Of a stretch of DNA of 64,000 nucleotides, positions 3,379 to 57,300 are shown in pieces. The notes beneath the pieces are model-generated. The model made no database searches. It saw only the letters and a program-made list of their open reading frames with translations, and had not been told where the DNA came from. Every line of letters begins with the position of its first letter. The stretch's first letter is position 1. The translations under genes were made by a program, and so were the position numbers. Origin of the DNA: Tessaracoccus rhinocerotis (GTDB lineage Bacteria; Actinomycetota; Actinomycetes; Propionibacteriales; Propionibacteriaceae); the NCBI RefSeq assembly GCF_007197885.1, contig NZ_VKKG01000005.1, forward strand, positions 186,001 through 250,000. The letters run 5' to 3'.

Positions 3379-3992
3379 TTGCGGGCCAGTGAGTTGAGCG
3401 CGGCACGCATCAGGGTGCCGATGGCGATGCCCGGGTCCTCGTCGACGAGGTGCGCGACGTTGTCACAGGCGGCGGCGGCGTCCCGCGCCGACCAGCCCAG
3501 CCCCTGCAGCCCGTCCCCGACCTGCTCGCGCCACGCTTCGCCGCGGGTCGACGACTGCGGGGCGGCAGCGGCCCCCGACTCGTCGTCGGGGAGCAGGAGG
3601 ACCTTGTCCTTGAGTTCGATCACGAGCTTCTGGGCACCCTTGCGGCCGATCCCGGGCACGCTGCAGAGCCGGTTGAGGTCCTCGCTGTTGACGGCGCGAC
3701 GGATCTCGGCGGGGCTCAGGACGGAGACGATGGCGGCGGCCAGGCGGGGGCCGACGCCGGAGGCGGTCTGGACCAGCTCGAACGCCTCCCGCTCCCCCGG
3801 GAACTGGAACCCGTACAGGGTCAGGGAGTCCTCGCGGACCACCATGGAGGTGTGGATGGTCGAGGTCTCCCCGGGACGGACCGCAGCCGCGGTGGCAGGG
3901 GTGGTGTGGACGAGGTAGCCGACGCCGCCCACCTCCAGCACGAACTGCGTGGCCCCGGCCTGCAGGACCGTCCCCGTCAACTGCGCGATCAT
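3375..3992 (-). CDS. ruvA: RuvA, Holliday junction DNA-binding subunit
   Basis: RuvA tetramers bind the four-way junction and load RuvB. The 205-residue product has the N-terminal OB fold ([10 protein letters not shown] start), two helix-hairpin-helix motifs in the middle ([14 protein letters not shown] and [16 protein letters not shown]), an Ala/Ser-rich flexible linker and the C-terminal domain III that contacts RuvB. It overlaps ruvC by ATGA and ruvB by GTGA, so all three genes are coupled. Confidence 0.98.
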
Positions 3993-4510
3993 GCGATTCC
4001 CTTCGCTCTCGCCACCGCGGCGGCGTACCTGTTGCTGCTCCCGCCGCGCCAGAGGTGGCAGATGGCCAGCGCCAGGGCGTCGGCCGCGTCGGCCGGCCTG
4101 GGGGCCGAGGCAAGCTTGAGGATGCGGACCACCATGGCGCCCACCTGTGCCTTGTCCGCCCGGCCGGAGCCGGTGACGGCCGCCTTGACCTCGCTGGGCG
4201 TGTGGAAGGCCACGGGCAGTCCCCGCCGTGCCCCGACCAGGGCTGCGACGCCGGAGGCCTGGGCCGTTCCGATCACCGTGTTGAGGTTCTGCTGCGCGAA
4301 CACGCGTTCGACGGCGACGACGTCGGGTCGGTACTCGTCGAACCAGGACTCGAGCCCTGCCTCCACCTCAGCGAGCCGGTTGGCGACGTCCAGGGCGGCG
4401 TCCGTGCGGACCACGCCGACGCCGACCAGCCTGACCTGACGCCCGATGTCGCCCTCGACCACACCGACACCGCACCGCGTCAGGCCGGGGTCGATCCCCA
4501 GAACTCGCAT
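3989..4510 (-). CDS. ruvC: RuvC, Holliday junction resolvase
   Basis: RuvC is the endonuclease that nicks Holliday junctions symmetrically after RuvAB migration. The 173-residue product carries the catalytic acids of the RNase H-like fold: D7 in [12 protein letters not shown]68 in VAVERVF and the C-terminal pair in [14 protein letters not shown]. It is the first gene of the operon. The 27-base leader contains GAGGG before the ATG, and a LexA-type box plus a TAGGAT -10 lie immediately upstream. Confidence 0.98.
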
Positions 4511-4521
4511 GTCACACCCTC

Positions 4522-4543
4522 TCGAACATCTGTTCGGATCCTA
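4522..4543 (-). promoter_or_regulatory. SOS (LexA) box and -10 element of ruvCAB
   Basis: Bases 4522-4537 read TCGAACATCTGTTCGG, matching the actinobacterial and Gram-positive LexA consensus TCGAAC-N4-GTTCGA at 11 of 12 fixed positions. On the minus strand a TAGGAT -10 hexamer (4538-4543) directly abuts it, so LexA bound here would cover the transcription start of ruvC. No convincing -35 is visible. DNA-damage induction of ruvCAB is known in many bacteria; its use here is inferred from the site. Confidence 0.85.
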
Positions 4544-4582
4544 GCGGGCGCGACCCCGGACCGCGGCCCGACACGCAGGCCC

Positions 4583-5356
4583 TCAGTCCTCGGCGGCCAG
4601 TTGCGCCTGCACCTCGGGGCTGAGTTCGACGTTGTCGTAGACGTTCTGCACGTCGTCGGAGTCCTCCAGGGCATCGACGATTCGCATCACCTTGCCGGCC
4701 ACGTCGGCCGAGTCCACCAGCTGGCCGAAGGACGGGACGAACTGGACCTCGGAGGAGTCGTAGTCGAGACCTGCGGCCTCGATCGCCTTGCGCACCTCCA
4801 CGACGTCGTTGGGGTCCGAGATCGCCTCCCAGCTCTCCCCCGCGTCGTTGGTCTCCTCCAGCCCTGCCTCGAGCGCCGCCTCGAGGACGGCGTCCTCGGT
4901 GACCTCCCCGGAGGCCTGGTGCTTGGGGACCACCACGACGCCCTTGCGGGCGAACAGGCGCAGCACGGATCCCACGTCGGCCATGGTGCCGCCGTTGCGG
5001 GTGACCGCGACGCGGACGTCGGAGGCCGAACGGTTGCGGTTGTCGGTCAAGCACTCGATCAGCATTGCCACGCCGGAGGGGCCGTAGGCCTCGTACATGA
5101 TGGTCTCGTAGTCAGAGCCACCCGACTCGGCACCGGAGCCGCGCTTCACCGCGCGGTCGATGTTGTCGTTGGGTACCGAGGACTTCTTGGCCTTCTGGAT
5201 GGCGTCGTAGAGGGTCGGGTTGCCGGAGGGATCCCCGCCGCCCAGGCGTGCGGCCACCTCGACGTTCTTCACGAGCTTGGCGAACAGTTTGCCGCGCTTG
5301 GCGTCGATGACGGCCTTCTTGTGCTTGGTGGTGGCCCATTTGGAGTGTCCGCTCAT
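4583..5356 (-). CDS. yebC: YebC/PmpR-family protein
   Basis: This is a conserved cytoplasmic protein family reported both as DNA-binding regulators and, for some members, as ribosome-associated factors easing translation of difficult sequences. The exact role here is not determined. The 257-residue product has the family's N-terminal signature [14 protein letters not shown], then [20 protein letters not shown], and the central [13 protein letters not shown] strand. Length is normal. It lies upstream of ruvC with a 72-base gap that contains the ruvC promoter, the usual actinobacterial neighbourhood. A TAGGGT -10-like box lies about 40 bases upstream of its ATG. Confidence 0.95.
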
Positions 5357-5409
5357 GCGACCTGCCTTGTGTTGTGGGTGGACGGATTTCGCCCTCCACC
5401 CTATCGAAC

Positions 5410-6378
5410 TCAGGGATGCTCGGCGGGCACGACCTTGCTCATCAGGACGAGGCCGTCACGCGGCTCGTAGCCGAGGTTGCGCTTCAGCAACCCGGGCGAC
5501 GCCGGGTCGGTCGTGTCGACCCCGATCCCGGCTCCGTCGCAGCCGTCCTCGGCCATCGCCACGAGGGTTCGTTGCAGCAGCGCGATCGCGATTCCGCGGC
5601 CACGGAAATCGGGGTGGACGCCCACCCGGTCGGTCCAGCCGAACGTGGCACCCTCGAGCGCCAACTCCTCGTCGAGACCCGACAGGGCGTAACCGACGGG
5701 TGCGTCGTCGACCAGGGCCACCCACGACCACGCGGGACGGAAGCTGTCGCGGGTCAGCGACTCCTGCCAGACGCTGTTGCCCACCCTGCGCGTGCCCAAG
5801 GTGTCGCGGAAGCAGATGTTGTGCAGCTTGAGGAGGTCCGTCGCGTGGCGCTGGTCGAAGCGCTCGATGCGGACGCCGTCCACGTCGAGCAGCGGAGGCA
5901 GGTCGTCGAGCGGTCGGTGCATGTCGTAGAAGTAACGCTCCTGCTCGAAGCCGAGCTTCTCCAGGAGCTTGCCGAGGCCGGCCTGGGCGTGGTCGACATA
6001 GCAACCGAGCCAGACGGGCTCACCCGGGCGGTGCTCGTCGCGCCACTCGATCGCCCGCCGCTGCTGCCACTCGAGCACCGAGCGCCCGATCCCGAGGTAG
6101 CGGTGGGTCGGGTGCACACCACCCAGCAGGTAGACCTTCGCGATCCCGTCCTCGTCGACGATGTTCCAGCCGTAGGCCAGCAGGTTGCCGAAGTCGTCCC
6201 AGCCCCCGACGCTGTTGTCGGAAAGGTCCGTGACGTCGTCCATGCCGACGAGTCGCTCCAGGGAGGAGACCACCGGATCGTCGAGCAGCTCGATCTGGCC
6301 ACGCAGGGAGTCGAGGTCAACGAGGTCGTCATCGGTCAGCGCTCGCCAGTTCAGGTGCCTGCCGACGTACGGGTCCAT
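5410..6378 (-). CDS. Tandem GNAT-domain acetyltransferase
   Basis: The 322-residue protein contains two GNAT folds. The N-terminal copy has an acetyl-CoA loop at [15 protein letters not shown] (about 125-140). The C-terminal copy has [16 protein letters not shown] (about 255-270), followed by the [18 protein letters not shown] region that caps such domains. Tandem GNATs in actinobacteria include mycothiol synthase MshD, but the sequence between the domains does not look like MshD to me, so the substrate is left open. The start ATG at 6378 follows a purine-rich stretch. An upstream TAGACT box (about 25 bases) could be the -10. Confidence 0.8.
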
Positions 6379-6409
6379 GCCACCCCCAGGTGCTTCGTTG
6401 GCACCGAGT

Positions 6410-7225
6410 CTATCCGCGGCGGGTCGAGGGCCGACGCCAAATCCGCCTTCGCGTCCTGGCGACGCGCGGCGTGGTCTGCTGCCACAGCCTGCGCCACCTG
6501 GGCATCGCCTCCGCGGCGGGCTGGTCGTCTGCGCGTCGGTGCTGCACCGTCCACCAGGAGAGGTCCCCCGTGTGGAACAGCTGCCCCACGGCAGACTGCA
6601 GTTCACCGGTGGCCTCGGCCAGCGAGCGTCCGCGCACGTAGATCGGCGAGCCGAAGCGGACCGACACGTGCGGCTTGTTCTGCAGTGCCAGACCCAGCAC
6701 CTCATTGAGCTTGAACGTGCCCACCAGCGCGACCGGGACGATCGGGACGTTGTACTGGCTCGCCAGCTGGGCCGCCAGCGGGGTGAACTCCCCCACCTCC
6801 CCGTCCACGACGGGATCCTCGGTGAACAACACGACGCTGTTGCCGCGGGCAAGGGAACGGCTCGGCGTCCGGATGGTCGCACGCAGCCCGCTGGGCAGGA
6901 CGGCGCGCAGCACCTGCCAGTCCAGGACACCGGCCTCGTTCACCGCGAAGATGACCGGCGGTTGCAGGCCGGAGAGCGCGTCGAGACCAGCCACCTGGTA
7001 GTCCAGGCGCCACGTCAGCAGCTGTAGCAGGTTCGGCGTCTTCTGCAGGTCCGTCAGGCCCAGGCGCAGCCGCTGGGTGGGAGCCTTCGGGGGTGCGCCC
7101 TGTGGGCGCCGGTGGCACAACCCGAACAGGCTGCCCGCGAACCCGAACACGTCGGAGAACCAGGTCACCCTCACCCTGGGCCGCTCGCGCCGCTCCTGGG
7201 CCCAGGACTCGAGCTGCCTGCTCAC
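6410..7225 (-). CDS. PlsC-like acyltransferase with altered active site
   Basis: The 271-residue protein aligns with the lysophospholipid acyltransferase (PlsC) superfamily: a substrate strand ending in FAVNEAGVLDW (about 95-105), a second block at VVLFTEDPVVDG and a third at VPIVPVALVG. Family members use an NHxxxxD motif for catalysis. Here the histidine position holds Glu (NEAGVLD), and the FPEGTR block is FTEDPV, so ordinary acyl transfer is doubtful. The C terminus is Arg-rich. It overlaps the LarA-like gene by four bases (ATGA) and is the last gene of a three-gene cassette with the SDR-HAD fusion. Confidence 0.7.
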   Translation of the reverse strand: MSRQLESWAQERRERPRVRVTWFSDVFGFAGSLFGLCHRRPQGAPPKAPTQRLRLGLTDLQKTPNLLQLLTWRLDYQVAGLDALSGLQPPVIFAVNEAGVLDWQVLRAVLPSGLRATIRTPSRSLARGNSVVLFTEDPVVDGEVGEFTPLAAQLASQYNVPIVPVALVGTFKLNEVLGLALQNKPHVSVRFGSPIYVRGRSLAEATGELQSAVGQLFHTGDLSWWTVQHRRADDQPAAEAMPRWRRLWQQTTPRVARTRRRIWRRPSTRRG

Positions 7226-8742
7226 CGCACGACCCCGAGCAGTTGGCCGGGCCCGTGCAGGTGCGTGATGTCCGGGTGGGAGCCGACTGTGTTGGAGGCG
7301 ATCTCGAGCGCATCGGCGAAGGTTGTGGCTGCCCGGTGCCCGAGGACGGCGGCGCTGCGCCGGTCCCCGCCCACCCAGATCACGTCGCCGAGCCTGTTGG
7401 TGGCCTCCCTGATCCGGTACCAGGTGTGGAAGACCTTGAGCGGGTGGTTGGCGTAGTGCTCGCGGTACAGCGCCAGGTACCAGGGGTCCAGCGAGGCGGC
7501 GCCCTCGAACCGCTCGCGGATGACCTCCGGGTCGAGCGTCTCGGGCAACACCTTGGCGAACAGGTCGGCCGCGGCCGACTGGGTGCGGTTGGAGAAGTTT
7601 CGCGACAGCGGGTGGCGCGCGATGAGGACGCCGCCCTCTCGCACGAGCGGGGTCCCAGCATGGCTACCGGCCTGCTCCACCAGTGCATCGTGGGCCGCGT
7701 TGATGGGCGAGCCGACCGGGTTGCCGTTGTCGAACGAGGAGCCCCATACCGAGACGGCCAGGACGTCGGCGGATCCGGGCAACTCGACGGAGTTGGCGGC
7801 CATCCACGCCTCGCGTGCCTGCTGGCGCACGAGCGCGGCGTCCCCGCCGATCATGTCGGAGATCGCGTAGTCGGCGAGGGGATTTCCGAACAGCTTCTGC
7901 GAGCCGCGCTTGGTCAGGGCGGAGACCAGTTGGCGGGCCGTCGCGAACGCGAACTGGTCCGGCAGGCGCCACTCCCACTCGCGCTTGTTCAGGAAGGACA
8001 GGGACGTCCCCAGCAGCGGTTGCCCGAGCACGGCGGTGACGGCGAACGTCGGCACGGCGTCGTACACGATGCGAGTGATCCGGTCGGTGGTGGCCCGGTC
8101 GGCGTACAGGCCCTCCAGGCGGTTGATGGTCTCGGTGTCGGTGAGCCCGAGCGCGAGGCCACAGCCCGAGGTGTGATCGCTGGCCACTCCGATGCTGACC
8201 ACGAGGTCGGACTCGGCGACGCGCTTGTTGAGCCTGACGGGGACGCCGTCGACGTCGCCGATGGTGACCAGGTCCTCGGCGGTCACGTCGTGGCTGCTGA
8301 TGAGGCCGTCCGGGATGAAGGAGGTGGCGACGCGGTCACCCAGGATCTTGCTGATCTCGGGTCGGCTCCAGCGGCGGTTGAGACCGGTGGCGATCACGAT
8401 CTGGACGTCGTCCACCCCGGCCCGGGCCGCATGCTCGAGCACTCGCTCGAGGATGCTGCGGCGCACGTCGAAGCGCATCCGCGGCTCCGGCTGCTTGTCG
8501 TCCCGGACCACGATGGTCAGCTTCGTGGAGCGGTCGAGGGTGCTGGGGAGCGGCTCGGCCCCGACGGGGCTCTCGAGCGCGGCGTCGATCAGGCCCACCG
8601 GGTCCTCGGAGGCCACCGAGTCTGCCGGGTACGCGACCCGGGTTCCGACGCCGAAGCGCTCCAGCCGCAGGTCGGCACCGGACAGCGTGAGCAGCGGCGG
8701 GGTCTTCTCGTCGACCTCAAGGACAAAACCGGGACGGGACAT
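7222..8742 (-). CDS. LarA-like (DUF2088/lactate racemase-fold) protein
   Basis: The 506-residue protein resembles the LarA/DUF2088 superfamily. A block at about 85-135 (VRDDKQPEP followed by VIATGLNRRWS) corresponds to the family's D-x-TRP and ATGxHRP motifs. The region about 180-205 (VSIGVASDHTSGCGLALGL) corresponds to the second half of the active site. In nickel-pincer LarA the ATGxHRP histidine is catalytic; here it is Asn, and no LarB/C/E cofactor genes are nearby. Lactate racemisation is therefore not supported, and the reaction is unknown. Its ATG abuts the stop of the SDR-HAD gene with no gap. Confidence 0.68.
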   Translation of the reverse strand: MSRPGFVLEVDEKTPPLLTLSGADLRLERFGVGTRVAYPADSVASEDPVGLIDAALESPVGAEPLPSTLDRSTKLTIVVRDDKQPEPRMRFDVRRSILERVLEHAARAGVDDVQIVIATGLNRRWSRPEISKILGDRVATSFIPDGLISSHDVTAEDLVTIGDVDGVPVRLNKRVAESDLVVSIGVASDHTSGCGLALGLTDTETINRLEGLYADRATTDRITRIVYDAVPTFAVTAVLGQPLLGTSLSFLNKREWEWRLPDQFAFATARQLVSALTKRGSQKLFGNPLADYAISDMIGGDAALVRQQAREAWMAANSVELPGSADVLAVSVWGSSFDNGNPVGSPINAAHDALVEQAGSHAGTPLVREGGVLIARHPLSRNFSNRTQSAAADLFAKVLPETLDPEVIRERFEGAASLDPWYLALYREHYANHPLKVFHTWYRIREATNRLGDVIWVGGDRRSAAVLGHRAATTFADALEIASNTVGSHPDITHLHGPGQLLGVVR

Positions 8743-11109
8743 CTACCGTTCCTCTCTCACGTGGGGAAGCTTCCAGCGGGGCTGTGGGGAGTCCGACGGC
8801 CACTCGATCACTGACCAGCTGCTGGAGCGGGCCGCCCGCATCAGGCCGACGTCGGGGTTGACGGCGACGGGGTTGCCGACGGCGCGCAGCATCGGCAGGT
8901 CGACGTGGCTGTCCGCGTAGGCGAACGACTTGGAAAGGTCGAACTTGTGCAGGTTCGCGTAGTGGCGCAGCCATGCGGAACGCGACTCCCCCACCATCGG
9001 TGGCCCGGACAGGAAGCCGGTGCACACACCGGTGGCGTCGGTGGCCAGGTCCGCCGCGACGATGTGGTCGAAGAGGCCCTCGAAGGGCCGCGTCAGGGGG
9101 CGGATGACACCGGTCATCAGGACCGTGGTGTGGCCCGCCTCCCGGTGCTCGCGGATCCGGCGGATGGCCTCGGGCGAGGTGCGGTCGAGGATGAAGGCCG
9201 ACAGGTGCTCCTCCACGAAGTTCTCGAGCTCGGCCAGGTCGGCACCCGCGTAGCGCCGGTAGATCTGGCGCAGGAAGATGCCGCGGTCCTTGCGCTCGGC
9301 ACCGATGTAGTTCGGCAGCTGCCAGATCACCTTCGCCACCTCGGCGGCGCGTTCCGCGATGGACAGCTCGGGCAGCTTCAGCCAGAGGTAGGTCTCGACG
9401 ACGTTGGTGGCCATGACGGTGCCGTCGAGGTCGAAGGCCGCCAGCACAGTGCCGGGCTCCGACGGCTTGAGCGCCTTGTACGTGGCGGAGCGCTGGCTGC
9501 GCCGCTTGCGCGCGGCCTCCAGACGCCGCACCGGGTCGGTGATCGCGGGGACGTGCACTTCCTCCAGGTAGTGGGTCCAGTCCACGTCGCCGGAGTCGAA
9601 CCCGAAGGCCTCCCGGTCCTCGGGGTGCAGAGAGTGGTGCAGCGCGAGGGTGCAGTCGTCCACGAAGTGCACCTCGGACTGCAGGTACTCGCCGTAGAGC
9701 GACAGGTACTTGTTCAGGAAGTCGAGTTGCTTGGCGGTCTTGTCCAGGGACATCGCCGCCGCCCGGACCTGCTTTCCCCTCGGCGCGAAGCTGAGCAGCT
9801 TGTTGCCCACCTTGATGCCCTTGTCCGCGAACCAGAGCAACCGCTCCACGGGCTCGGCGCCAGGGAAGTTCCACACTGCCAGCGGGACGGAGCCCTGCCC
9901 CTCGGTGTAGGGATGCTGCGAGAAGTAGGAGCGGATGTGCTCGTAGATCCCCCGGAACGTGAGCGGGTTCCTCGCTCCGGAGCTGCAGTGGTAGAACTCA
10001 GGCTGGCCGATCTCCGGCTGCGTGGCGCAGACCGCAACGATCGCGTTGACGACGTAGTCGCAGGGGATGATGTCGATCACGGCATCGGGCGAGGCCGGGA
10101 ACTCCGGAAGCTGCCCCCGGCCGTAGGCCAGGATCAGCGGGTCAGCCATCTTGAACCCCTCGATCCAACCCGGGTAGGGGTCGCGCAGCGAGGACTCCAC
10201 GATGGCCGGACGCACGATCGAGACCTGCATGTCCCCACCCAGGTCCGTCACGACGCGCTCGCCCATCGCCTTGGCGAAGGTGTACACGTCGGTCCAGCCC
10301 AGCGAGCGGGCCCGCTCTGTGCCGGCGGCCACCAGTTCGCGGTCGACCCAGTCCTGGCGGCGGCGCTCGGTGTCCTCCGACGTCGTGAGGTAACCGGCGC
10401 GACGGTGCAGCCTCTCCGCTTGCTTGCGGAGTTCGGTGAGCTGCTCCGAGCTTCGCGAGAGCGTCTCGACGTGTTCCTTCATCGCCATGGCGGCACGCGT
10501 CTCGGCCTCGTAGTCGACGTCGTGGGCGTGCGCCGCCTCGGGGATGGCGCCGCGGCGACGTCCGGCCGTGTAGGCGGTGGAGATGTGGACGTAGTGCGGG
10601 ATGCGCTCGAGGTTGCCGGCGGCGTCGCTGCAGGACTCTCGGAACTTGGTGAGCAGCGCCTTCGTGCCGATCACGTTGGTCATGAAGGCCTGGTCGATCG
10701 GCGGGTCGAAGGACACGTCGCCGGCGCAGTGGACGAGGACGTCGATGTCGCGTGGCAGGTCCGGCACGTTCGGCAGGTCACCCTCGATGACGTCGACCCG
10801 CGCCGCCATCAGGGCCTCGACGGATCCGGCAGTCTCGACCAGCGGCTTGAAGATCTTCTTCTTCAGCAGGCTCGCCACGCGCTCTGCGGCCGTCACAGAG
10901 CCCTTGCGGCGCACCAGCACTCCGGTGCGCACCTCCGGGCACTCGGTGAGGAACTTCCACAGCATCTGTTCGCCGATGAAGCCGGTGACACCGGTCATCA
11001 CCACCTTCTTGCCCGCCAGCAGGTCCCGGATCCTCCCGTCCAGCAGGGGCGGGGTGTGGACGGAGGCGGTCTCCGGGACGCCGAAGCTGCTCCTCGGCGC
11101 GCTGGCCAT
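8743..11109 (-). CDS. Fusion of acyl-CoA-reductase-like SDR and HAD-IB phosphatase domains
   Basis: The 788-residue product has two enzymatic halves. Residues about 30-420 form an extended SDR of the NAD_binding_4 (fatty acyl-CoA reductase / male sterility) type, with VVMTGVTGFIGEQ as the nucleotide loop, VHCAGDVSFD, the HISTAYTAG strand and the catalytic YTFAK motif. Residues about 565-760 form a HAD-IB hydrolase with FDLDGT, the TG of motif II, a motif III Lys (LSK) and YADSHVDLPML. Such a protein could reduce an acyl thioester and dephosphorylate a lipid intermediate, but no substrate can be read from sequence. It starts one base after priA ends, so it is transcribed with the his operon. 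Confidence 0.82.
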   Translation of the reverse strand: MASAPRSSFGVPETASVHTPPLLDGRIRDLLAGKKVVMTGVTGFIGEQMLWKFLTECPEVRTGVLVRRKGSVTAAERVASLLKKKIFKPLVETAGSVEALMAARVDVIEGDLPNVPDLPRDIDVLVHCAGDVSFDPPIDQAFMTNVIGTKALLTKFRESCSDAAGNLERIPHYVHISTAYTAGRRRGAIPEAAHAHDVDYEAETRAAMAMKEHVETLSRSSEQLTELRKQAERLHRRAGYLTTSEDTERRRQDWVDRELVAAGTERARSLGWTDVYTFAKAMGERVVTDLGGDMQVSIVRPAIVESSLRDPYPGWIEGFKMADPLILAYGRGQLPEFPASPDAVIDIIPCDYVVNAIVAVCATQPEIGQPEFYHCSSGARNPLTFRGIYEHIRSYFSQHPYTEGQGSVPLAVWNFPGAEPVERLLWFADKGIKVGNKLLSFAPRGKQVRAAAMSLDKTAKQLDFLNKYLSLYGEYLQSEVHFVDDCTLALHHSLHPEDREAFGFDSGDVDWTHYLEEVHVPAITDPVRRLEAARKRRSQRSATYKALKPSEPGTVLAAFDLDGTVMATNVVETYLWLKLPELSIAERAAEVAKVIWQLPNYIGAERKDRGIFLRQIYRRYAGADLAELENFVEEHLSAFILDRTSPEAIRRIREHREAGHTTVLMTGVIRPLTRPFEGLFDHIVAADLATDATGVCTGFLSGPPMVGESRSAWLRHYANLHKFDLSKSFAYADSHVDLPMLRAVGNPVAVNPDVGLMRAARSSSWSVIEWPSDSPQPRWKLPHVREER

Positions 11110-48678: not shown

Positions 48679-49404
48679 TCAGCGTGCGGCCTTGCTGAGC
48701 CCGCGCAGGATCGGCTCGTAGTGCTTGGTCACGGCGGCCCGGTAGGCCTCCGCGTCGCCCGCCTCCGCCGCTCGCAGGATGTCCCCGTGCGCCTCGGCCG
48801 TGACATTGATGTCTTCGGGCGTCGGGATCTCGAGCTGGGGCTTCACCGCTGTGTGCACGTCCCAGAAGGCCGCCACCAGTTGCGCCGCCATCTCCAGGCC
48901 GGTCTCGCGCAGCAGGCGGGTGTGGAACTCCCTGTCCGCGGCCTCGAAGTCCTCCTCGACCGCGGCGCGGCGGGCCATCTCGTCCACGAGTTCGTGGAGC
49001 CGGTCGTCGCGCCTGCCTGCGAAGTGGGCCACGACGCGGTTCGCGAACGCTTGGTCCATACCCACCCGCACGTCCACCACCTCGCGCAGTGCCCGGAAGT
49101 CGTCGCCGGGGCTGATGACGGACCGAAATGCGAGCGTCTCGACGAGGGGCTGCAGGGTCATGGCGCCCACGAAGGTGCCCCGGCCGTGCTGCACGTCGAC
49201 GATCTCGAGCGTGGTGAGCGTCCTGATGGCCTCGCGCACGGACGAGCGCGAGACGTTCAACCGCTCGCACAGTTCCGACTCGCTCGGCAGGGCGTCGCCC
49301 GGGTGGAGCCCGTTGGACAGTATGAGCGCCTTGATCTGCTTGGCGGCGGTACTTGCCAGGGAACTACCATTCCTGACGACCGCACGCTGGCCATTTGCGG
49401 CCAT
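48679..49404 (-). CDS. GntR-family regulator, FadR/FCD subfamily
   Basis: The 241-residue protein has an N-terminal winged helix ([36 protein letters not shown], about 22-60) and an all-helical FCD effector domain (about 90-235) with the usual metal-site residues ([23 protein letters not shown]). GGAGG precedes the ATG at 49404. It is divergent from a truncated binding-protein gene, and nanA/nanE-like genes lie beyond the inserted DNA, so a sialic-acid-type (NanR-like) regulator is a reasonable inference. Confidence 0.88.
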
Positions 49405-49494
49405 CACACCTCCATGTGTATCGATTGGGTCACGTTCACGCAGGATAGGACGTCCATCCCTTGCACAGTTACTCAACCCTAGTGCATACCTGAC

Positions 49495-49521
49495 ATCAGT
49501 CATCAGACATCTGATCATCAG
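49495..49521. promoter_or_regulatory. Cluster of ATCAG half-sites, probable GntR operator
   Basis: Four ATCAG/CTGAT half-sites lie at 49495-49499, 49502-49506, 49511-49515 and 49517-49521. The middle pair forms the perfect palindrome ATCAGACATCTGAT (49502-49515). They lie between the divergent GntR gene and the start of the binding-protein gene, just before its ribosome site. Binding by the adjacent regulator is inferred. Confidence 0.5.
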
Positions 49522-49534
49522 GGGAGATCCAAGG

Positions 49535-49680
49535 ATGAACCTCCCGACCGAAGCCAGCGCACTTTCGCGTCGCTCTTTCGTCAAGCTGCTCGGTGCCACA
49601 ACGTCCGCCGCCGGCCTCACGGCAACCCTGGCCGCGTGCGGCACCCCTGAGCAGGACCCGACCGCGGGCGCCACCCGTTA
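49535..49680 (+). pseudogene. Truncated ABC substrate-binding lipoprotein (signal peptide only)
   Basis: The ATG at 49535 (AAGG directly before it, AGGGGAGA further upstream) opens with a twin-arginine motif SRRSFVKLLG, a hydrophobic segment and a lipobox ending LAAC, then CGTPEQDPTAGAT. This is the start of an extracellular solute-binding lipoprotein. About 15 residues after the Cys the sequence leaves this family and runs into the IS110 left end, where the frame stops at 49748-49750. About 450 or more residues of the protein are missing. Confidence 0.8.
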
Positions 49681-49707
49681 CCTTCTAGGTAGCCCCGATG
49701 GTCGGGG

Positions 49708-49885
49708 TTCTGGTCACCAGGCCCGGCATGACTTACTGCCCCTGTCATAGATGATCCGGGGGGTGTTGTCACCGGGTTCTGGTGGCGTGGGTTGATCGCT
49801 GATAGGGACACGGCCCGCTGCATCGACAGCGTGGTCTCTTCGTAACGTGGGTGCCGACGATCTTCGCCCGACTTGGTGACCAGAA
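49708..49885 (+). ncRNA. Candidate IS110 bridge RNA (seekRNA) region
   Basis: IS110-subgroup elements encode, in the non-coding end before the recombinase, a structured RNA that pairs with target and donor DNA. Here TTCTGGTCACC (49708-49718) and GGTGACCAGAA (49875-49885) are perfect 11-base complements bounding 178 bases. Inside or next to it are hairpins such as CGCTG-CATCGA-CAGCG (about 49827-49842) and CACC-GGGTTCT-GGTG. The RNA's true ends and loops are not established from sequence alone. Confidence 0.55.
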
Positions 49886-49907
49886 TTAGGTCCTAAGGAG
49901 GACTGTC

Positions 49908-51104
49908 ATGGACCAAGACCGGTTCGACGTATTCGTCGGCCTCGATGTAGGCAAGGAACACCACCATGCCACCGCGCTCAACAGCGCCGGGAGACGTCTG
50001 CATGACAAGGCCCTGCCCCAAGACGAGGCTGCCCTGCGCGAGGTGTTCGACAAGCTCACCGTCCATGGGTCGGTGTTGGTGATCGTGGACCAGCCCGCCA
50101 CGATCGGGGCACTGCCTGTGACCGTCGCTCGAGCGATGGGTATCGAGGTCGCCTATCTGCCCGGGCTGGCGATGCGCCGCATCGCTGATCTCCACCCGGG
50201 CAACGCGAAAACCGACGCCCGTGAGGCGTTCATCATCGCTGAGGCCGGCCGCACCATGCCCCACGCGCTGCGACGCGTCGGCGGCGGCGATGACCTCATC
50301 GCCGACTTGGCTGTGATCGTTGGGTTCGACGACGAGCTGGCCAGCGAAGTCAACCGCGTCTCGAACCGGATCCGCGGCATGCTCACCCAGATCCATCCCG
50401 CCCTCGAACGCGCCATCGGCGCCAACATCGGCCACCCCGCGGTCCTCGCCCTGTTGGCAAAGTTCGCCGGCCCGACAGGCCTCGCTGCCGCGGGCAGGCG
50501 ACGCCTGACCACCACGACGAAACCGTTGGCGCCCCGAATGCACACCCGGCTCGTCGACGCGATCATCAAAGCCCTGACCGAGCAGACCGTAGTTGTTCCT
50601 GGCACCCGCGCCGCCGAGCTGGTGTTGCCCCAACTGGCTGCCCAACTCCAAGGACTCCTGGCCCAACGCGCTGCAGCCGCGAAACAGGTTGAGGAGGCCC
50701 TCGATGCCCACCCTCTTTCCCAGCTCCTGATGTCAATGCCCGGAGTCGGCATCAGGACCGCAGCCAGACTCCTCCTCGACGTCGGTGACGCCACAGCATT
50801 CCCCACCGCAGGACACCTGGCCGCCTACGCCGGCCTGGCCCCTGTCACCCGCAGATCTGGCAGCAGCATCCGAGGCGAACACCCCTCACGAGCAGGGAAC
50901 AAACACCTCAAACGGGCCCTATTCCTCTCCGCTTTCGCAGCCCTCCACGACCCCGACTCCCGCGCCTACTACGACCGGAAACGCGCCGCTGGGAAGAAAC
51001 ACAACGCCGCGATCATCTGCCTAGCCCGACGACGCGTCGATGTCCTCCACGCCATGCTCCGCAACGGGACCTACTACCAACCAAGACCTGCCGTCGCGGC
51101 TTGA
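49908..51104 (+). CDS. IS110-family transposase (DEDD recombinase)
   Basis: The 398-residue protein has the RuvC-like DEDD domain at the N terminus (FVGLDVGKEHH with Asp13, VLVIVDQP, and LHPGNAKTDAREAFIIAE) and the C-terminal transposase_20 domain (LLMSMPGVGIRTAARLLLDVGD, then AAYAGLAPVTRRSGSSIRGE with the catalytic Ser region and GNKHLKRALFLSAFAAL). The frame is intact, with AAGGAGG six bases before the ATG, so the element may be active. Confidence 0.96.
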   Translation: MDQDRFDVFVGLDVGKEHHHATALNSAGRRLHDKALPQDEAALREVFDKLTVHGSVLVIVDQPATIGALPVTVARAMGIEVAYLPGLAMRRIADLHPGNAKTDAREAFIIAEAGRTMPHALRRVGGGDDLIADLAVIVGFDDELASEVNRVSNRIRGMLTQIHPALERAIGANIGHPAVLALLAKFAGPTGLAAAGRRRLTTTTKPLAPRMHTRLVDAIIKALTEQTVVVPGTRAAELVLPQLAAQLQGLLAQRAAAAKQVEEALDAHPLSQLLMSMPGVGIRTAARLLLDVGDATAFPTAGHLAAYAGLAPVTRRSGSSIRGEHPSRAGNKHLKRALFLSAFAALHDPDSRAYYDRKRAAGKKHNAAIICLARRRVDVLHAMLRNGTYYQPRPAVAA

Positions 51105-51131
51105 CAGACACCATAGGGACACCCCCCCTTT

Positions 51132-51207
51132 GCCGGGGAAGAACCTTCGGAGGTTCACCCGTTTCGTACGCGGGAGGGAGACGGTTCGAATCCGGTCCCC
51201 GGCTCCA
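51132..51207 (+). tRNA. tRNA-Thr (anticodon CGT), phage-type
   Basis: The cloverleaf can be drawn by eye: acceptor GCCGGGG/CCCCGGC (51132-51138 with 51197-51203), D arm GAAC/GTTC, anticodon stem CCCGT/GCGGG with loop TTCGTAC (anticodon CGT at 51165-51167, T33 and A37 in place), a 5-base variable loop, T loop TTCGAAT, discriminator T and an encoded CCA. One mismatch occurs in the T stem. It starts right after the IS110 end. Confidence 0.85.
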
Positions 51208-51241
51208 ACACCACACCCACACACATGAAAGGAGGCCTTTG

Positions 51242-51328
51242 ATGGCTGACACGAGACAACCAGAGACGCTGTGCCTGGGATGCTTCACGCTGCGCGCCAA
51301 CTCCGGCGACTGCGCCTGCATCGGATAA
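51242..51328 (+). CDS. 28-residue Cys-rich microprotein
   Basis: The small ORF lies between two tRNA genes. AAAGGAGG six bases before the ATG is among the strongest ribosome sites in the window. The product has two cysteine pairs, CLGC (about 12-15) and CAC (about 24-26), like a minimal zinc ribbon. Small phage proteins of this type are common; the function is unknown. Confidence 0.6.
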   Translation: MADTRQPETLCLGCFTLRANSGDCACIG

Positions 51329-51335
51329 CAGCCGA

Positions 51336-51409
51336 CGGGATGTAGCTCAACCAGGTCAGAGCAGCTGCCTGATACGCAGCAGATTCCGGTTCAAATCCGG
51401 CCATCCCGA
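51336..51409 (+). tRNA. tRNA-Ile (anticodon GAT), phage-type
   Basis: Acceptor CGGGATG/CATCCCG (51336-51342 with 51402-51408), D arm GCTC/GAGC, anticodon stem GCTGC/GCAGC with loop CTGATAC (anticodon GAT at 51371-51373), T loop TTCAAAT with one terminal mismatch in the T stem, discriminator A. No CCA is encoded. The C1-G72 pair and the CTC-containing D arm differ from typical chromosomal tRNA-Ile, supporting a phage origin. Confidence 0.82.
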
Positions 51410-51421
51410 CGCAGCCGAGCA

Positions 51422-51467
51422 GGGAAGTAGTGACCCGGACGGGTCGTTCTCGGAGAGGTAGCTTCCC
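51422..51467 (+). other. Structured sequence after the tRNA-Ile
   Basis: GGGAAG (51422-51427) pairs with CTTCCC (51462-51467), enclosing the hairpin GACCC-GGAC-GGGTC (51432-51445) and a short TCT/AGA stem, a possible three-way junction. It does not fold as a tRNA. The 353-base stretch 51410-51762 otherwise holds no gene I can support; an open frame there continues into the HNH gene but lacks a ribosome site. Confidence 0.3.
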
Positions 51468-51762
51468 GCCCGTGCAGGACCATCCCGGGGTTAGCGTCCC
51501 AGGAAGGACGGGACCAGTCGGCGACGGCTGGAAGCGGCACAGCCGGCACGTGCCCCGGCGACGGACACAACACCAACACGACGCATTCACTGCAGCGGCT
51601 GCGGGCACGCTACCCCCGGCGCTGCTGTGCGATGCGTCACGGTGCCCCTTGTGTGGTCCCGGCGTCCCGGATGTGCCGCATCCTGCAACACCCAGCCTGA
51701 GTCCGTGGCCTCGAGTGCCGAACACCCACACGTCGAACCCAGAATGGAGGGGTGGAACGGAC

Positions 51763-52326
51763 ATGTCCACGAACCGCACGAAGCAGCGCCCGCACCGGCA
51801 CATCGCCGCAGAGCAGGTAGCCGACCACACCCGGACCACGTTCGTCATCGGCCTCGACTACGACGTGAAGCATGAGATCGGGTGGCAGGACGCCACGATC
51901 GGTCTCCTCGACGGCACGTACACCGAGTTCAAGGTCCACCCCACCAAACGGATCCGTTCCGCTGGCGGGATCGACATCGCCTGGCCGGTCATCGTCCGCC
52001 TGAACTACTGGGTCGACATCCCGTTCAGGCGCGCCCCCGACCTTGCAACGAAGGTGGCACGGTTGGACGTTCTCCGCCGTGACGGCTGGACTTGCTGCTT
52101 CTGCGGCGGGTTCGGAAACACCGTCGACCACCTCCTGCCCGCATCCCGCGGAGGCGGATGGACGTGGGGGAACCTGGTTGCCGCGTGCAGCAGCTGCAAC
52201 GGGACGAAGGCTGACCGGACCCCCCCCCCCGAGGCGGGCATGAAGCTGCTGTGGGACCCCAGGGTGTCCACCAGCGAGTACGCCGGCGTCCAGGCCGAAG
52301 TGTGGCGGATCCTGCAAGACGGGTGA
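51763..52326 (+). CDS. HNH endonuclease, phage-type
   Basis: The 187-residue protein carries a zinc-type HNH domain at about 104-160: DGWTCCFCG (C111 and C114), VDHLLPASRGG (D122, H123), GNLVAACSSCNGTK (N137, C142 and C145). The N-terminal 100 residues are unrelated to known domains I recognise. The ATG at 51763 follows GGAGGGG. Such genes lie near packaging genes of actinophages or act as free-standing nucleases. An 11-base C run (52220-52230) lies inside the gene without breaking the frame. Confidence 0.85.
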   Translation: MSTNRTKQRPHRHIAAEQVADHTRTTFVIGLDYDVKHEIGWQDATIGLLDGTYTEFKVHPTKRIRSAGGIDIAWPVIVRLNYWVDIPFRRAPDLATKVARLDVLRRDGWTCCFCGGFGNTVDHLLPASRGGGWTWGNLVAACSSCNGTKADRTPPPEAGMKLLWDPRVSTSEYAGVQAEVWRILQDG

Positions 52327-52493
52327 TTGAAGGGGCGCGCCTCGGCGCCGAGCAGACGTGCACGGTTCGACGCCGAGGTGGCGGCGTAGATCGACAAGGG
52401 GCGGTTTGTTGGTATCCCCACGCAACCCCCATCCGAAGGTGCACACTGCGTCTAGTCGGGCTGGTCACAATGACACCGACGGAGAGAGGGTCA

Positions 52494-53491
52494 ATGATGA
52501 TCTCGAGACGGCAGCTCTTGGTTGCTGCAGGCTTGGCTGGTGCAGGAACGATGCTAGGCGGCCACAACGCGCCGGCTCGCCCTTCACTGTGAGGGAACTG
52601 ATCTCTGGGCCAAAGTCGCAGCTGGAGCTATGGGAGCTGTCCCGCTCAGGCTACGTGCTGGTCGACGCGGCGTCCCAAGCCATGATCGAGTACTCCGACG
52701 ATGCAACGAGCCCGCTCCGAGGGTTTGAAGGGCAGGACGCGACATACCTCGGCCCAGGCGAGTACGTCGTTGCTATGCCCAACGGACAGGCAATGAATGC
52801 GCTCAACGGCGCACCCCGCGAGGAACTGAGTGTGAATCGAATCGGTGAGGTCACCGACCAGATTGGCGCACTGGCAGCCACCGCGGACGTCTACTCGCTA
52901 CAAAATCGTTCGCGTGTGGGCATCACCGCTGTGCCGCCCCCGGTCGGAACGAACGTCCAGTTCCGGATCCCCTCCTACGGCTACATCACCGGCTGCACAG
53001 TCCTCCACAACACTGCCGCCGAGGGACGCTGCGGATGGGTGGCAGCGACGATTGTCATGCGTTACTGGCACGCCCGTTCCGGCAAGGTCTTGATCCCGGC
53101 AGCGCACCGTACGGGTACGAACATCAAGGCTGTCTCCGGGGCCGACTTCGCTGACCTGATCCGGAACGGGCGCTCAATGGCGTCCTGGGGGCTGCCGGTC
53201 GCAGATGGCATCGGCTACCACGCGTTGACACGTCAGAAGGTTGCTTCGCAGGCTTGGTACAACTGGGCGAGCACGAATGTGAACTCAGCACTGAACGCAG
53301 GACGTCCAGTCATCCTCTTCGGGAGCCTGCCGGACGCCTACGTCAACGGTAAGTCCATCCCCCACGCCGTCGTCGCCTACGGCAAATCGAAGGATGGGCA
53401 CAACATCGTTCACTACACCTACGCGGGTAAGCAGGCCGTCGTCCTGAACTCGGGGGTCGTCGCCAGCAATACCCATTTCATGCTGAGGTGA
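52494..53491 (+). pseudogene. Secreted C39/papain-like cysteine peptidase with a frameshift after the signal peptide
   Basis: The ATG at 52494 (AGAGAGGG upstream) encodes a Tat-type signal, ISRRQLLVAAGLAGAGTMLG, that stops at 52592. The adjoining frame begins at about 52575 with FTVRELISGPKSQ and runs to 53491. This second part is a peptidase-C39-like domain: catalytic Cys in EGRCGWVAATIVM, His in KSIPHAVVAYG and a following HYTYAG. One C lost from a short C run near 52580 would explain the break (restored reading APARPFTVREL). It may be a true mutation or a base-calling error. Confidence 0.65.
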
Positions 53492-53907
53492 TGGCTGTGA
53501 AGAAACTGCTCGCAGTCGCCGGTCTCGTTGTCACTGCTGCCGCTGTCGTGATCATGTTCCTGCCCACGTATGCGACGACGTGGAGCGTTGAGGGCGGCAA
53601 CAAGATCACGAACGGTCCCTGGTACGACTTCCTGCTCATCGCCTACTTCAACGTCGTGCCGATCATCTGCATGGCTGGCGGGTTTGTCATGGCTGCAGGG
53701 CTGGTGGTGGGGCTCGTCCGTGGACGCGTCCGGGGCTGGGTGGCGGTGCCCGGGGTCGTTGCGGCCACGCTGCTCGCGTTGTTCGGCTACGACTCGAACA
53801 GCGCCTGGTTCGTCACCGAGGCGGGTGTGTGGGTCGCTCCGCTACTGGCTGTGGCCGCGTTGGCGGCGACGGCATCGTGGTGGGTCGGCAAACGGGCGAC
53901 CGTGTGA
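53491..53907 (+). CDS. Small membrane protein after the peptidase gene
   Basis: The 138-residue protein has four hydrophobic segments (about 5-24, 47-72, 80-98 and 108-128). Its ATG shares one base with the peptidase stop (TGATG), so the two form one unit. I recognise no family. Pairing of a secreted peptidase with a membrane protein could mean export, anchoring or self-protection; nothing in the sequence decides. Confidence 0.6.
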   Translation: MAVKKLLAVAGLVVTAAAVVIMFLPTYATTWSVEGGNKITNGPWYDFLLIAYFNVVPIICMAGGFVMAAGLVVGLVRGRVRGWVAVPGVVAATLLALFGYDSNSAWFVTEAGVWVAPLLAVAALAATASWWVGKRATV

Positions 53908-53988
53908 ACTTCGCCCCGCGGCTTTGTCGTCTGTGCCGCACACGTCACCTCCGAACGAGTCGTCGACGCGAAGGTGGAGGGGCAGCAG

Positions 53989-54621
53989 ATGCAGTACGAG
54001 GACGCGCTGCGGGTGTGGGGTGCTGGCCGGTTGACGGCCGCGCGGCTCGAGCGGGACACCTACATCAACGACTTGACGCGCCGCTACGGCGGCTACGGGC
54101 CTGCGAAGGAGACGGTCTCGCCGGTTCAGTTCGACCCGGCTACCGTCGAGGTGAAGTTCATCTACGACGAGGGGATTCGGTGCTGCACCACCCCCGACCC
54201 GCTGTGCTACTGCTCGCAGGCGACAGAACCGGTCGCTGAGGTGTCCATCAGCGGCGTCAGCAAGAACGGTGACCGGTCGTACGCGACGATCCAGGCCCGC
54301 GAGTTCGACTTCGCCCGTGCCCTGACGCTCGAGCCGGACGTGATCATCGCCGACGAACCCACGTCCGCTCTGGACGTGTCCGTCCGCGCCCAGGTGCTGA
54401 ACCTCCTGATGGACCTCAAGGAGCGCCTGGGCCTCGGCCTGGTTTTCATCTCCCACGACATCAACACGGTCCGCTTCATCTCGGACCGGATCGCCGTCAT
54501 GTACTTCGGCAAGGTCGTCGAACTCGCCCCGACGGACGAGATCTTCAACTCCCCCAAGGATCCCTACACCAAGAAACTGCTGTCCGCAGTTCCGTCGCTA
54601 CTCCAGGAGCAGAACGCATGA
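53989..54621 (+). CDS. Chimeric ORF: phage-type protein fused to the C-terminal end of an oligopeptide ABC ATPase
   Basis: The 210-residue frame starts at ATG 53989 (GGAGGGG upstream). Residues 1 to about 108 resemble actinophage proteins ([15 protein letters not shown] start, then [20 protein letters not shown]). From about 109 it is the end of a DppF/OppF-type ATPase: [21 protein letters not shown] with Walker B, the H-loop [14 protein letters not shown] and the oligopeptide-type tail [12 protein letters not shown]. Walker A and the LSGGQ signature are gone, so it cannot work as an ATPase. The junction is near 54312. Confidence 0.75.
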
Positions 54622-55543
54622 ACGCCCCACCTTCCAGGGCATCTACCCGCCCGTCGTGACCCCCCTCCACGAGGACGGGAGCATCGACTTCGACTCACTG
54701 GGCAACGTCGTGGACCACCTCATCGACGGTGGGATGCACGGGTTGTTCGTCCTCGGCTCCACTGGCGAGGTGGCATACCTCACCGACGAGCAGCGGGTGC
54801 AGGTGATCACCCGGATCGCCGAGCGCGCCGCCGGCCGCGTGCCGCTCCTGGTCGGCTGCATGGACATGACGGCGGCCCGCGTGGTCGAGCAGGGCCGACG
54901 CGCCGTCGCCGCCGGTGCCGACGGCATCGTCGTGACCGCCCCGTTCTACGCGCTCAACAACGGCCCGGAGATCGCCGACCACTTCCGCCTCGTCGCTGCG
55001 GGTGTCGACGTCCCGGTGTTCGCCTACGACGTCCCGGTCCGACTGGGCGGCGTGAAACTCGCACCGGAGATGCTCGTGCAGCTGGGCACCGAGGGCGTCA
55101 TCGCTGGAGTGAAGGACTCCTCCGGCGACGACGTCGGCTACCGCCGTCTGGTGGCCCAGAACAAGGCCGCAGGATCACCGCTGAAGCTGTTCACCGGCCA
55201 CGAGATGGTCAACGACGCCGTCGTGCTGATGGGATGTGACGGCATGGTCCCCGGCTTCGCGAACGTGGACCCGGTCTCGTACCGACGCCTCTGGGACGCC
55301 GCGACGAGCGGGGACTGGGCCACCGCGGTCTCGCTCCAGGAGCAGATCAACTCCGAGTTCGAGATCGTCTTCAAGCCCCGCGGCCGCGGCGGCGACGCCA
55401 CCGGTCTCGGTGCTTTCAAGACCGCCATGCACCTGCTCGGCCTCATCAGCTCACCCCGACAGCCGCAGCCGCTCCCGGCCATGCCCGCCGAGGACGTCGC
55501 TGCCGTGCGCGAGGTGCTGGTCGGGACGGGGCTGCTGAAGTGA
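54618..55543 (+). pseudogene. N-acetylneuraminate lyase / DapA-family aldolase, start frameshifted
   Basis: Most of the gene reads as a DapA-superfamily aldolase: PPVVTPLHEDGSIDFDSL, GSTGEVAYLTDEQR, the catalytic Tyr in FAYDVPVR and the Schiff-base Lys in GVKDSSGDD. The expected start ATG (54618, overlapping the ATPase stop as ATGA) is out of frame: one C is missing from the CCCC run at 54625-54628. The next in-frame GTG (54656) would drop the first beta strand and has no ribosome site. Its neighbour nanE suggests sialic-acid cleavage as the original role. Confidence 0.7.
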
Positions 55544-56229
55544 GCGTCGACCTCGCCTCCCTCAAGGGACGTCTCGTGGTCTCCTGCCAGGCCTATCCCG
55601 GCGAGGCGATGCGGGACCCGCGCACCATGGCACAGGTGGCGCAGGCCGCCGTGGTCGGCGGTGCGGCCGCCATCCGGGTGCAGGGCATCGACGACATCCG
55701 CGAGACCGCCAAGGTGCTCGACGTTCCCTTGATCGGCCTCTGGAAGGACGGCACGACCGGCGTCTACATCACGCCCACGCTGCGGCATGCACTGGCGTGC
55801 GCAGAGGCAGGGGCCGACATCGTCGCGATCGACGCCACCAGCCGCCCCCGGCCCGACGGCTCCACCTTCGCCCAGATCGTCGCCGGCCTGAAGGCCGAGT
55901 ACCCGGACGTGCTCGTGATGGCCGACTGCGGCTCCCTCGAGGACTGTGTGCGGGCCGAGGCCGAGGGTGCGGACATCATCGGCACGACCCTGGCCGGCTA
56001 CTCGGGTGACCGGGAGAAGACCGTGGGTCCGGACCTGGAGCTGGCCCGAGAGGTGATCGCTGCCTGCAGCCGACCCGTCGTGGTCGAGGGACGCGTCCAC
56101 ACCGTCGAACAGGCTGCCGCCGTGATGGCGCTGGGAGCCCACTCGGTGTGCGTCGGCACCGCGATCACGCACCCGTCAACCATCACGGGCTGGTTCGCCG
56201 CTGCGGTCGAGGGCAGCGCGCTCCGCTGA
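55540..56229 (+). CDS. nanE: NanE, N-acetylmannosamine-6-phosphate 2-epimerase
   Basis: NanE converts ManNAc-6-phosphate to GlcNAc-6-phosphate in sialic-acid use. The 229-residue (beta-alpha)8 protein shows LVVSCQAYPGEAM, AIRVQGIDDIRE, PLIGLWKDG, IVAIDATSRPRPDG, VMADCGSLEDC, GTTLAGYS and VVVEGRVHT. The GTG start overlaps the upstream aldolase stop (GTGA). The 3' end overlaps the convergent membrane gene by 54 bases. Confidence 0.93.
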   Translation: MSVDLASLKGRLVVSCQAYPGEAMRDPRTMAQVAQAAVVGGAAAIRVQGIDDIRETAKVLDVPLIGLWKDGTTGVYITPTLRHALACAEAGADIVAIDATSRPRPDGSTFAQIVAGLKAEYPDVLVMADCGSLEDCVRAEAEGADIIGTTLAGYSGDREKTVGPDLELAREVIAACSRPVVVEGRVHTVEQAAAVMALGAHSVCVGTAITHPSTITGWFAAAVEGSALR

Positions 56230-57300
56230 GGAGACCGACTCGCGCACCGCCGCCGGCCGCGGCCGCGGCTGGTCCACCAGCGCGGCGGAGACCGTCCGTA
56301 CGAACAGCAGCAGCCACACGAACACGAGTGCGACGGCGACGATCTCGAATGCCGTGACGTTGAGGTAGTCGATGCCGTTGCGCAGGTAGACGAACGTCAC
56401 GGTCAGGACAATGGTCACGACGGTGACGCCGATGAAACCACCCGGCAAGCGTCGGAACAGGATCGGCACCGCCACCAGGGTCGCGGCGAAGACGTACATC
56501 AGGGAATAGGTGAAGAAGTTGTGGCCGAAGCGGGAGAAGGTCACCGGAAAGCTCCCGATCCCCGCGAGGCACAGCCCCATCGCGATCAGCGACAACCGGA
56601 TGGCCCCGACCTTCCAGCGACGCTCCCCCACCCGCTCCGCCCAGGTCCTCAGGTCATGCGTGAGGAAGTCTGCCAGCGTGATCAGGACGACGCCCGTGAG
56701 GATGAGGGTGAAGTTGAACACGATCCCGGATGCGTCGAGGGTGGCCCCGAGCGCGGAGAAGTGAACCTGCCACCACAACTCGTTCGACGCGTTGAGCGCG
56801 CTCGCGAGCGCACCCACGACGAGGAACACAGCGACCAGCTGCGAGAGCGACTCGGTGGTGAGGGCCGTGGCGCTGGCCGCCGTGGCGTAGGCGGAGATGC
56901 CGCAGACCACTCCCACCATGAACGCACCCACCCAGTTGTCGAGCAGGACCCCGCGGAAGGCCTCGTTGAACACGGAGAACAGCCCGACGGTGACCAGGGT
57001 GGCGAGCGCGCCGTGCACCAGCGCGAGACCCAGGATGCTGTACACCTGTCGGAACTTGGGCAACTGGCGCAGCCAGGGACGCACCCTTGCCATGACGAAG
57101 TTCATGGCGAATCCGAAGGCGAGGGCGGACACGGGCAGCGCCGTCGCGGCGGCCACCTCGCCGACGGAACCGCGGCCGAACAGTCGGGACTCGGGGCCCA
57201 GCACGAAGATGCCGACGAGGCCTCCGATGAGCATGCCGATCCCACCCAGGAGGAGGCTGAGGTTCTCGCGCCTCGAGTCACGCGCGACGGGCAGGGTCAT
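56176..57300 (-). CDS. Multi-pass membrane protein of unknown function
   Basis: The 374-residue protein has about nine to ten hydrophobic segments (near 15-35, 48-70, 85-105, 120-145, 150-170, 190-215, 230-250, 262-282, 290-310 and 318-340) and an Arg/Pro-rich cytoplasmic tail. I cannot place it in a transporter family; the overall look is that of DUF998-like conserved membrane proteins. It is convergent with nanE, sharing 54 bases at the 3' ends. Confidence 0.75.
   Translation of the reverse strand: MTLPVARDSRRENLSLLLGGIGMLIGGLVGIFVLGPESRLFGRGSVGEVAAATALPVSALAFGFAMNFVMARVRPWLRQLPKFRQVYSILGLALVHGALATLVTVGLFSVFNEAFRGVLLDNWVGAFMVGVVCGISAYATAASATALTTESLSQLVAVFLVVGALASALNASNELWWQVHFSALGATLDASGIVFNFTLILTGVVLITLADFLTHDLRTWAERVGERRWKVGAIRLSLIAMGLCLAGIGSFPVTFSRFGHNFFTYSLMYVFAATLVAVPILFRRLPGGFIGVTVVTIVLTVTFVYLRNGIDYLNVTAFEIVAVALVFVWLLLFVRTVSAALVDQPRPRPAAVRESVSSAERAALDRSGEPARDG

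What the first reader, a model, noticed from the sequence alone, without database searches (positions are those of the whole stretch)
49535..56229. A sialic-acid-type uptake operon gutted by IS110 and phage DNA
Seen: a GntR gene and operator face a binding-lipoprotein gene cut off about 15 residues after its lipobox. 4.6 kb later the C-terminal third of a Dpp/Opp-type ATPase appears, followed by an aldolase and nanE in coupled order. Known: GntR, binding protein, two permeases, two ATPases, nanA and nanE form a common actinobacterial transport and catabolic order. Inference: mobile DNA replaced roughly the binding-protein body, both permeases and most of the ATPases.
Basis: partly seen in the sequence, partly recalled or inferred. 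Interest (0 to 1): 0.8.

Follow-up and report, generated by a model that had tools for sequence, protein, structure and literature searches.

The report
Sialic-acid uptake operon lost to mobile DNA
An actinobacterium has lost most of an operon for importing sialic acid because a jumping gene and a scrap of foreign, partly phage-like DNA now sit where its relatives keep the transport genes; it is a clear but ordinary case of gene decay.

Summary
The finding holds. Six same-genus relatives keep one intact operon in the same setting: satA (binding protein), satB (permease), satC (permease-ATPase fusion), satD (ATPase), nanA, nanE. The window keeps only the outer parts: the satA start (cut at 49673), the last third of satD (from about 54309), nanA and nanE. 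In between, about 5.2 kb is replaced by 4.64 kb: a complete IS110-family element (49674-51127/8), then 3.2 kb with two tRNA genes not matched elsewhere in the genome, an HNH gene, a broken gene with its membrane partner, and an actinophage-like gene cut at its 3' end and joined in frame to satD. Sialic acid as substrate is supported by homology to SatA. No other satA was found in the genome. The event looks recent. Loss of transporter and nanA is already described in another actinobacterium (PMC8754123), so novelty is low. The order of events is unresolved.

The parts
48679..49404 (-). GntR/FCD regulator of the operon, intact; best NCBIfam subfamily NanR but far under its cut-off (86.9 against 260 bits)
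49490..49519 (.). operator-like stretch upstream of satA, largely conserved in six relatives
49535..49673 (+). satA remnant: signal peptide, lipobox and 11 further residues; the open frame runs on into the IS to 49750 (71 aa)
49674..51127 (+). complete IS110-family element (right end 51127 or 51128)
   Evidence: ends fixed by copies in other genomes of the genus
49674..49907 (+). IS110 leader region, where a bridge RNA is expected; folds better than shuffles (z -2.64; 2 of 200 shuffles fold as well)
   Evidence: bridge RNA itself not shown
49908..51104 (+). IS110 transposase, 398 aa
   Evidence: PF01548, PF02371; NF033542 218.1 bits over cut-off 140
51132..51207 (+). tRNA-Thr (cgt); no second match in the own genome
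51336..51410 (+). tRNA-Ile (gat); no second match in the own genome; 77% to tRNA-Ile of Streptomyces phage Manuel
51763..52326 (+). HNH endonuclease-like gene
52494..53491 (+). broken gene: signal-peptide-like frame (52494-52592) and, in another frame, a body to 53491 that looks like a C39-type cysteine peptidase (label by eye)
   Evidence: NF045837 putative cysteine peptidase 32.4 bits, under its cut-off of 45; no Pfam match
53491..53907 (+). small membrane protein (label by eye), next to the C39-like gene in four relatives too
53974..54309 (+). actinophage-like gene lacking its 3' end, fused in frame to satD
54309..54621 (+). satD remnant, 102 residues of the C-terminus; Walker A and signature motif (recalled motifs, located in L033) absent
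54618..55543 (+). nanA (DHDPS-family aldolase); the usual start at 54618 is out of frame with the body; longest open frame with a common start begins at GTG 54656
55540..56229 (+). nanE, intact
   Evidence: PF04131 178.6 bits; NF002231 269 bits over cut-off 189

Best explanation
This is the remains of a GntR-controlled SatABCD-type sialic-acid ABC importer operon with nanA and nanE. Shown: an internal stretch that spans about 5.2 kb in relatives (satA body, satB, satC, front of satD) is missing, and 4.64 kb of IS110 plus foreign accessory and phage-like DNA stands there. Inferred: foreign DNA entered the operon, an illegitimate deletion joined a cut phage-like gene to satD, and IS110 sits at the satA side. 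Uptake through this importer must be lost. The nanA start has since been damaged, or that damage is a sequencing error; nanE and the regulator persist because little time has passed.
For: Synteny and outer homology in six relatives. IS110 ends fixed by copies of 99% and 98% identity in two other genomes. No satA orthologue elsewhere in the genome, best other hit 25% identity; best full-domain satC hits are general ABC ATPases at 46-48%. The satD remnant stays at 86-90% amino-acid identity with pN/pS 0.16-0.22 against 0.18 between the two groups of relatives, so no relaxation shows yet. The phage-like gene aligns to residue 81 of 94 of Beuffert gp164 up to the join, so it is cut there. The nanA start is in frame in 6 of 6 relatives and out of frame here.
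Against: No function was tested. nanA scores far below the curated nanA cut-off (102.8 against 382 bits) and nearer to dapA (141.7, also under its cut-off). The assembly has 49 contigs and reads were not seen, so the nanA frameshift could be an error. No strain of the same species without the insert was available. G+C of the insert (62-69%) overlaps that of its flanks (65-72%), so composition does not mark it as foreign.
Confidence: 0.92

Rival explanations
1. IS110 did the rearranging: its RNA-guided recombinase joined satA to foreign DNA, as a donor on a phage or plasmid, or by excision between sites on one molecule.
For: IS110 lies exactly at the satA side with both ends complete. [quoted passage not shown]
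Against: The right-hand join, phage-like gene to satD, has no IS end. Matching the flanks of ten copies to their leader regions gave no consistent guide signal; near-identical leaders have unlike flanks.
Confidence: 0.2
2. Assembly artefact: the foreign piece was joined into the contig wrongly.
For: Draft of 49 contigs; IS elements often break assemblies (general knowledge).
Against: The only other own-genome matches to this IS110 are partial, about 600 bases at 68% and 91 bases at 80% (in which 7 of 139 first-look candidates were scored). Both outer halves belong to the same operon in order and orientation.
Confidence: 0.05
3. The satD remnant fused to the phage-like gene is a new working protein.
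For: Open in-frame ORF of 215 aa; remnant still conserved.
Against: It lacks the ATP-binding front of SatD; the phage-like part was found in none of 390 other genomes sampled from the order; conservation is explained by recency.
Confidence: 0.03

Closest known systems
SatABCD sialic-acid ABC transporter (Haemophilus ducreyi)
   Same: The binding protein of relative L033 matches PDB 5za4, 5z99 and 5yyb at E 6e-135 to 1.8e-134; 5z99 is SatA with Neu5Ac (PMC11364026, passages only).
   Different: Here only the two outer ends of the operon remain.
nan cluster loss in Alloscardovia omnicolens (PMC8754123)
   Same: Loss of transporter and nanA genes, with further decay of what remains (passages only).
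   Different: The passages I saw describe no replacement by IS110 and phage-like DNA.
IS110-family insertion sequences
   Same: Transposase domains, conserved ends, structured leader.
   Different: Nothing unusual seen in the element itself.
Hypothetical gene 164 of Streptomyces phage Beuffert and kin
   Same: 37% identity over the phage-like gene, in a phage region with tRNA genes.
   Different: Here cut at its 3' end and fused to satD.

Membership tests
SatABCD-nan operon (as remnant) | satA, satB, satC, satD and nanA together in relatives | tested here: met
   10 of 10 relatives fetched hold near-full-length matches to all five; nanE directly follows nanA in 6 and lies apart in 4
SatABCD-nan operon (as remnant) | binding protein of the sialic-acid type | tested here: met
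   by sequence only, on relative L033; binding not testable here
SatABCD-nan operon (as remnant) | working importer in this genome | tested here: not met
   satA body, satB, satC and satD front absent from the locus; satA and satC not found elsewhere; satB and satD were not searched genome-wide
N-acetylneuraminate lyase | score over curated nanA cut-off | tested here: not met
   TIGR00683 102.8 against 382 bits; DHDPS family only; gene context supports the role
NanE | score over curated cut-off | tested here: met
   NF002231 269 against 189 bits
IS110 | DEDD and Transposase_20 domains | tested here: met
IS110 | element ends shared by copies elsewhere | tested here: met
   one copy, L057, differs over its first 11 bases
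IS110 | bridge RNA with loops that match target and donor | tested here: inconclusive
   fold z -2.64; guide match inconsistent
Prophage | structural, packaging or phage integrase genes | tested here: not met
   five proteins of the insert scanned: transposase families for IS110, HNH families, and one weak terminase-small-subunit family (5.6e-6) that matches only the HNH part; three proteins had no match

The most novel reading that the evidence does not exclude
The IS110 recombinase, guided by its RNA, itself joined incoming phage DNA to satA, so that this locus is a natural trace of bridge-RNA recombination between a phage and a chromosome.
Probability: 0.12. Interest if true: 0.45.

Novelty: new member of a known kind. 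Interest (0 to 1): 0.22.

Why it matters
It is a clean snapshot of how a nutrient operon dies, with the importer gone while its regulator and last enzyme gene still look sound. It also warns that nanA and nanE alone do not show that an actinobacterium takes up sialic acid.

Tried and rejected
Guide matching between IS110 leader and flanks: no consistent signal among ten copies, the window's included, two of them without a right flank. Viral contig scans with the phage-like gene and the C39-like gene found no relatives; with the HNH gene, 3 distant loci. A phage DNA search with 51100-54310 matched only the tRNA-Ile, in 3 records; the C39-like body had no phage match and no significant solved relative. 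PADLOC gave only weak HNH-domain matches, such as PtuB 30.4 bits; I do not call it a defence gene. A common source for the insert was not found: of 391 genomes sampled from the order, 100 (own included) gave some match, mostly short, and of the matches listed only the own one covered the whole stretch; only two first-look candidates per genome were scored. An Rfam match to SCARNA23 is under its gathering score and was set aside. Lineage test for gntR: the script picked a wrong frame and those numbers are not used. One frame printed for the nanA start began a base late; one search gives the right one. Structure prediction was not run because no open question depended on it.

Full report
Place. 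The window is part of a 356-kb contig in a 3.55-Mb genome of 49 contigs.

Intact state. I fetched wider regions for 10 of those 20. Six share the window's arrangement: DNA homology runs from 46.0 kb, through genes that I name gatB, gatA and gatC by eye, and gntR, to about 49645, and resumes at 54295-54313 through satD, nanA and nanE. In these six the gap between the two points holds the rest of satA, then satB, satC and the front of satD; it spans about 5.2 kb, against about 4.67 kb here, of which 4.64 kb is foreign. The other four have the same sat genes and nanA, with nanE placed apart. satC is one continuous match of about 690 aa in all ten; in L033 it carries both permease and ATPase domains.

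Substrate. The L033 binding protein matches three solved structures at E 6e-135 to 1.8e-134. One of them, 5z99, is SatA of H. ducreyi with bound Neu5Ac (PMC11364026, passages only). nanE passes its curated cut-off; the aldolase can only be placed in the DHDPS family. So sialic acid is likely but rests on homology and gene order.

Left side. The satA start, with its lipobox, is followed by the IS110 left end at 49674. Most copies in other genomes start at this same base (L057 aligns from 12 bases in), and full copies end at 51127 or 51128. In the own genome the only other matches are partial: about 600 bases at 68% and 91 bases at 80%.

Right side. From about 51128 to 54309 there are two tRNA genes, neither matched elsewhere in the own genome; an HNH gene with relatives of 65-72% amino-acid identity in four other genomes of the genus; a gene pair, C39-like and membrane, with relatives side by side in four further genomes, two of them matching only part of the C39-like body; and a gene 37% identical to actinophage genes, found in none of 390 other genomes sampled from the order. 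The C39-like gene has its signal-peptide-like start in another frame than its body. The phage-like gene aligns to residue 81 of 94 of its phage relative and then passes in frame into satD. By eye, up to five bases at the join fit both sides, which suits an illegitimate join, but the ancestral sequences are not known. No phage structural, packaging or integrase gene was recognised. The G+C of the insert overlaps that of its flanks.

What is left. GntR, the operator-like stretch and nanE look sound. nanA does not: in 6 of 6 relatives the start codon that overlaps the satD stop is in frame with the body, and here it is not. The open frame from the internal GTG lacks the first residues, which in this fold should include the first strand of the barrel (general knowledge of the DHDPS family). 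This could be decay or a sequencing error. The satD remnant, which cannot work as an ATPase, shows no more amino-acid change than intact copies do, so the loss seems recent. nanA shows pN/pS 0.35-0.45 against 0.35 between the two groups of relatives, a slight rise at most.

Rest of the pathway. No second satA was found; a second NanE-family match is weak (24.8 bits, 28.5 with neighbours, cut-off 27). Eight ROK-family matches, two of them in one reading frame, and one BNR_2 sialidase-like gene exist. The latter lies beside genes that look by eye like a tripartite tricarboxylate importer and a DHDPS-family enzyme. Another route of uptake is therefore not excluded, and other classes of sialic-acid transporter were not searched for.

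Known background. One survey reports putative sialic-acid catabolism in 66.67% of Tessaracoccus species examined, insertion sequences around nan in 243 of 255 nan-positive actinobacterial species, and stepwise loss in Alloscardovia omnicolens (PMC8754123, passages only). I ran five paper searches; I saw nothing on this locus in their listings, which is weak evidence since only part of the literature is held. The case is a good new example of a known process.

Noticed in passing
window 56176-57300: A DUF998-like membrane gene (26.3 bits, under the cut-off of 30) overlaps the nanE 3' end head to head; L033 and L034 show no matching DNA between nanE and 57380.
   Followed up: partly
L160 about 3970-9520 (G000:C23): Genes that look by eye like a GntR regulator, a DHDPS-family enzyme and a tripartite importer lie next to the BNR_2 sialidase-like gene; possibly a second sialic-acid or sugar-acid route.
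   Followed up: partly
L073, L074, L077, L081: The HNH gene of the insert has relatives of 65-72% identity in four other genomes of the genus, without the other insert genes within 13 kb; in L073 a transposase-like gene (by eye) is near.
   Followed up: partly
L080 (G007:C1:1622510-1631442): Two IS110 copies 99% identical to the window's, one of them partial, lie about 6.5 kb apart.
   Followed up: no
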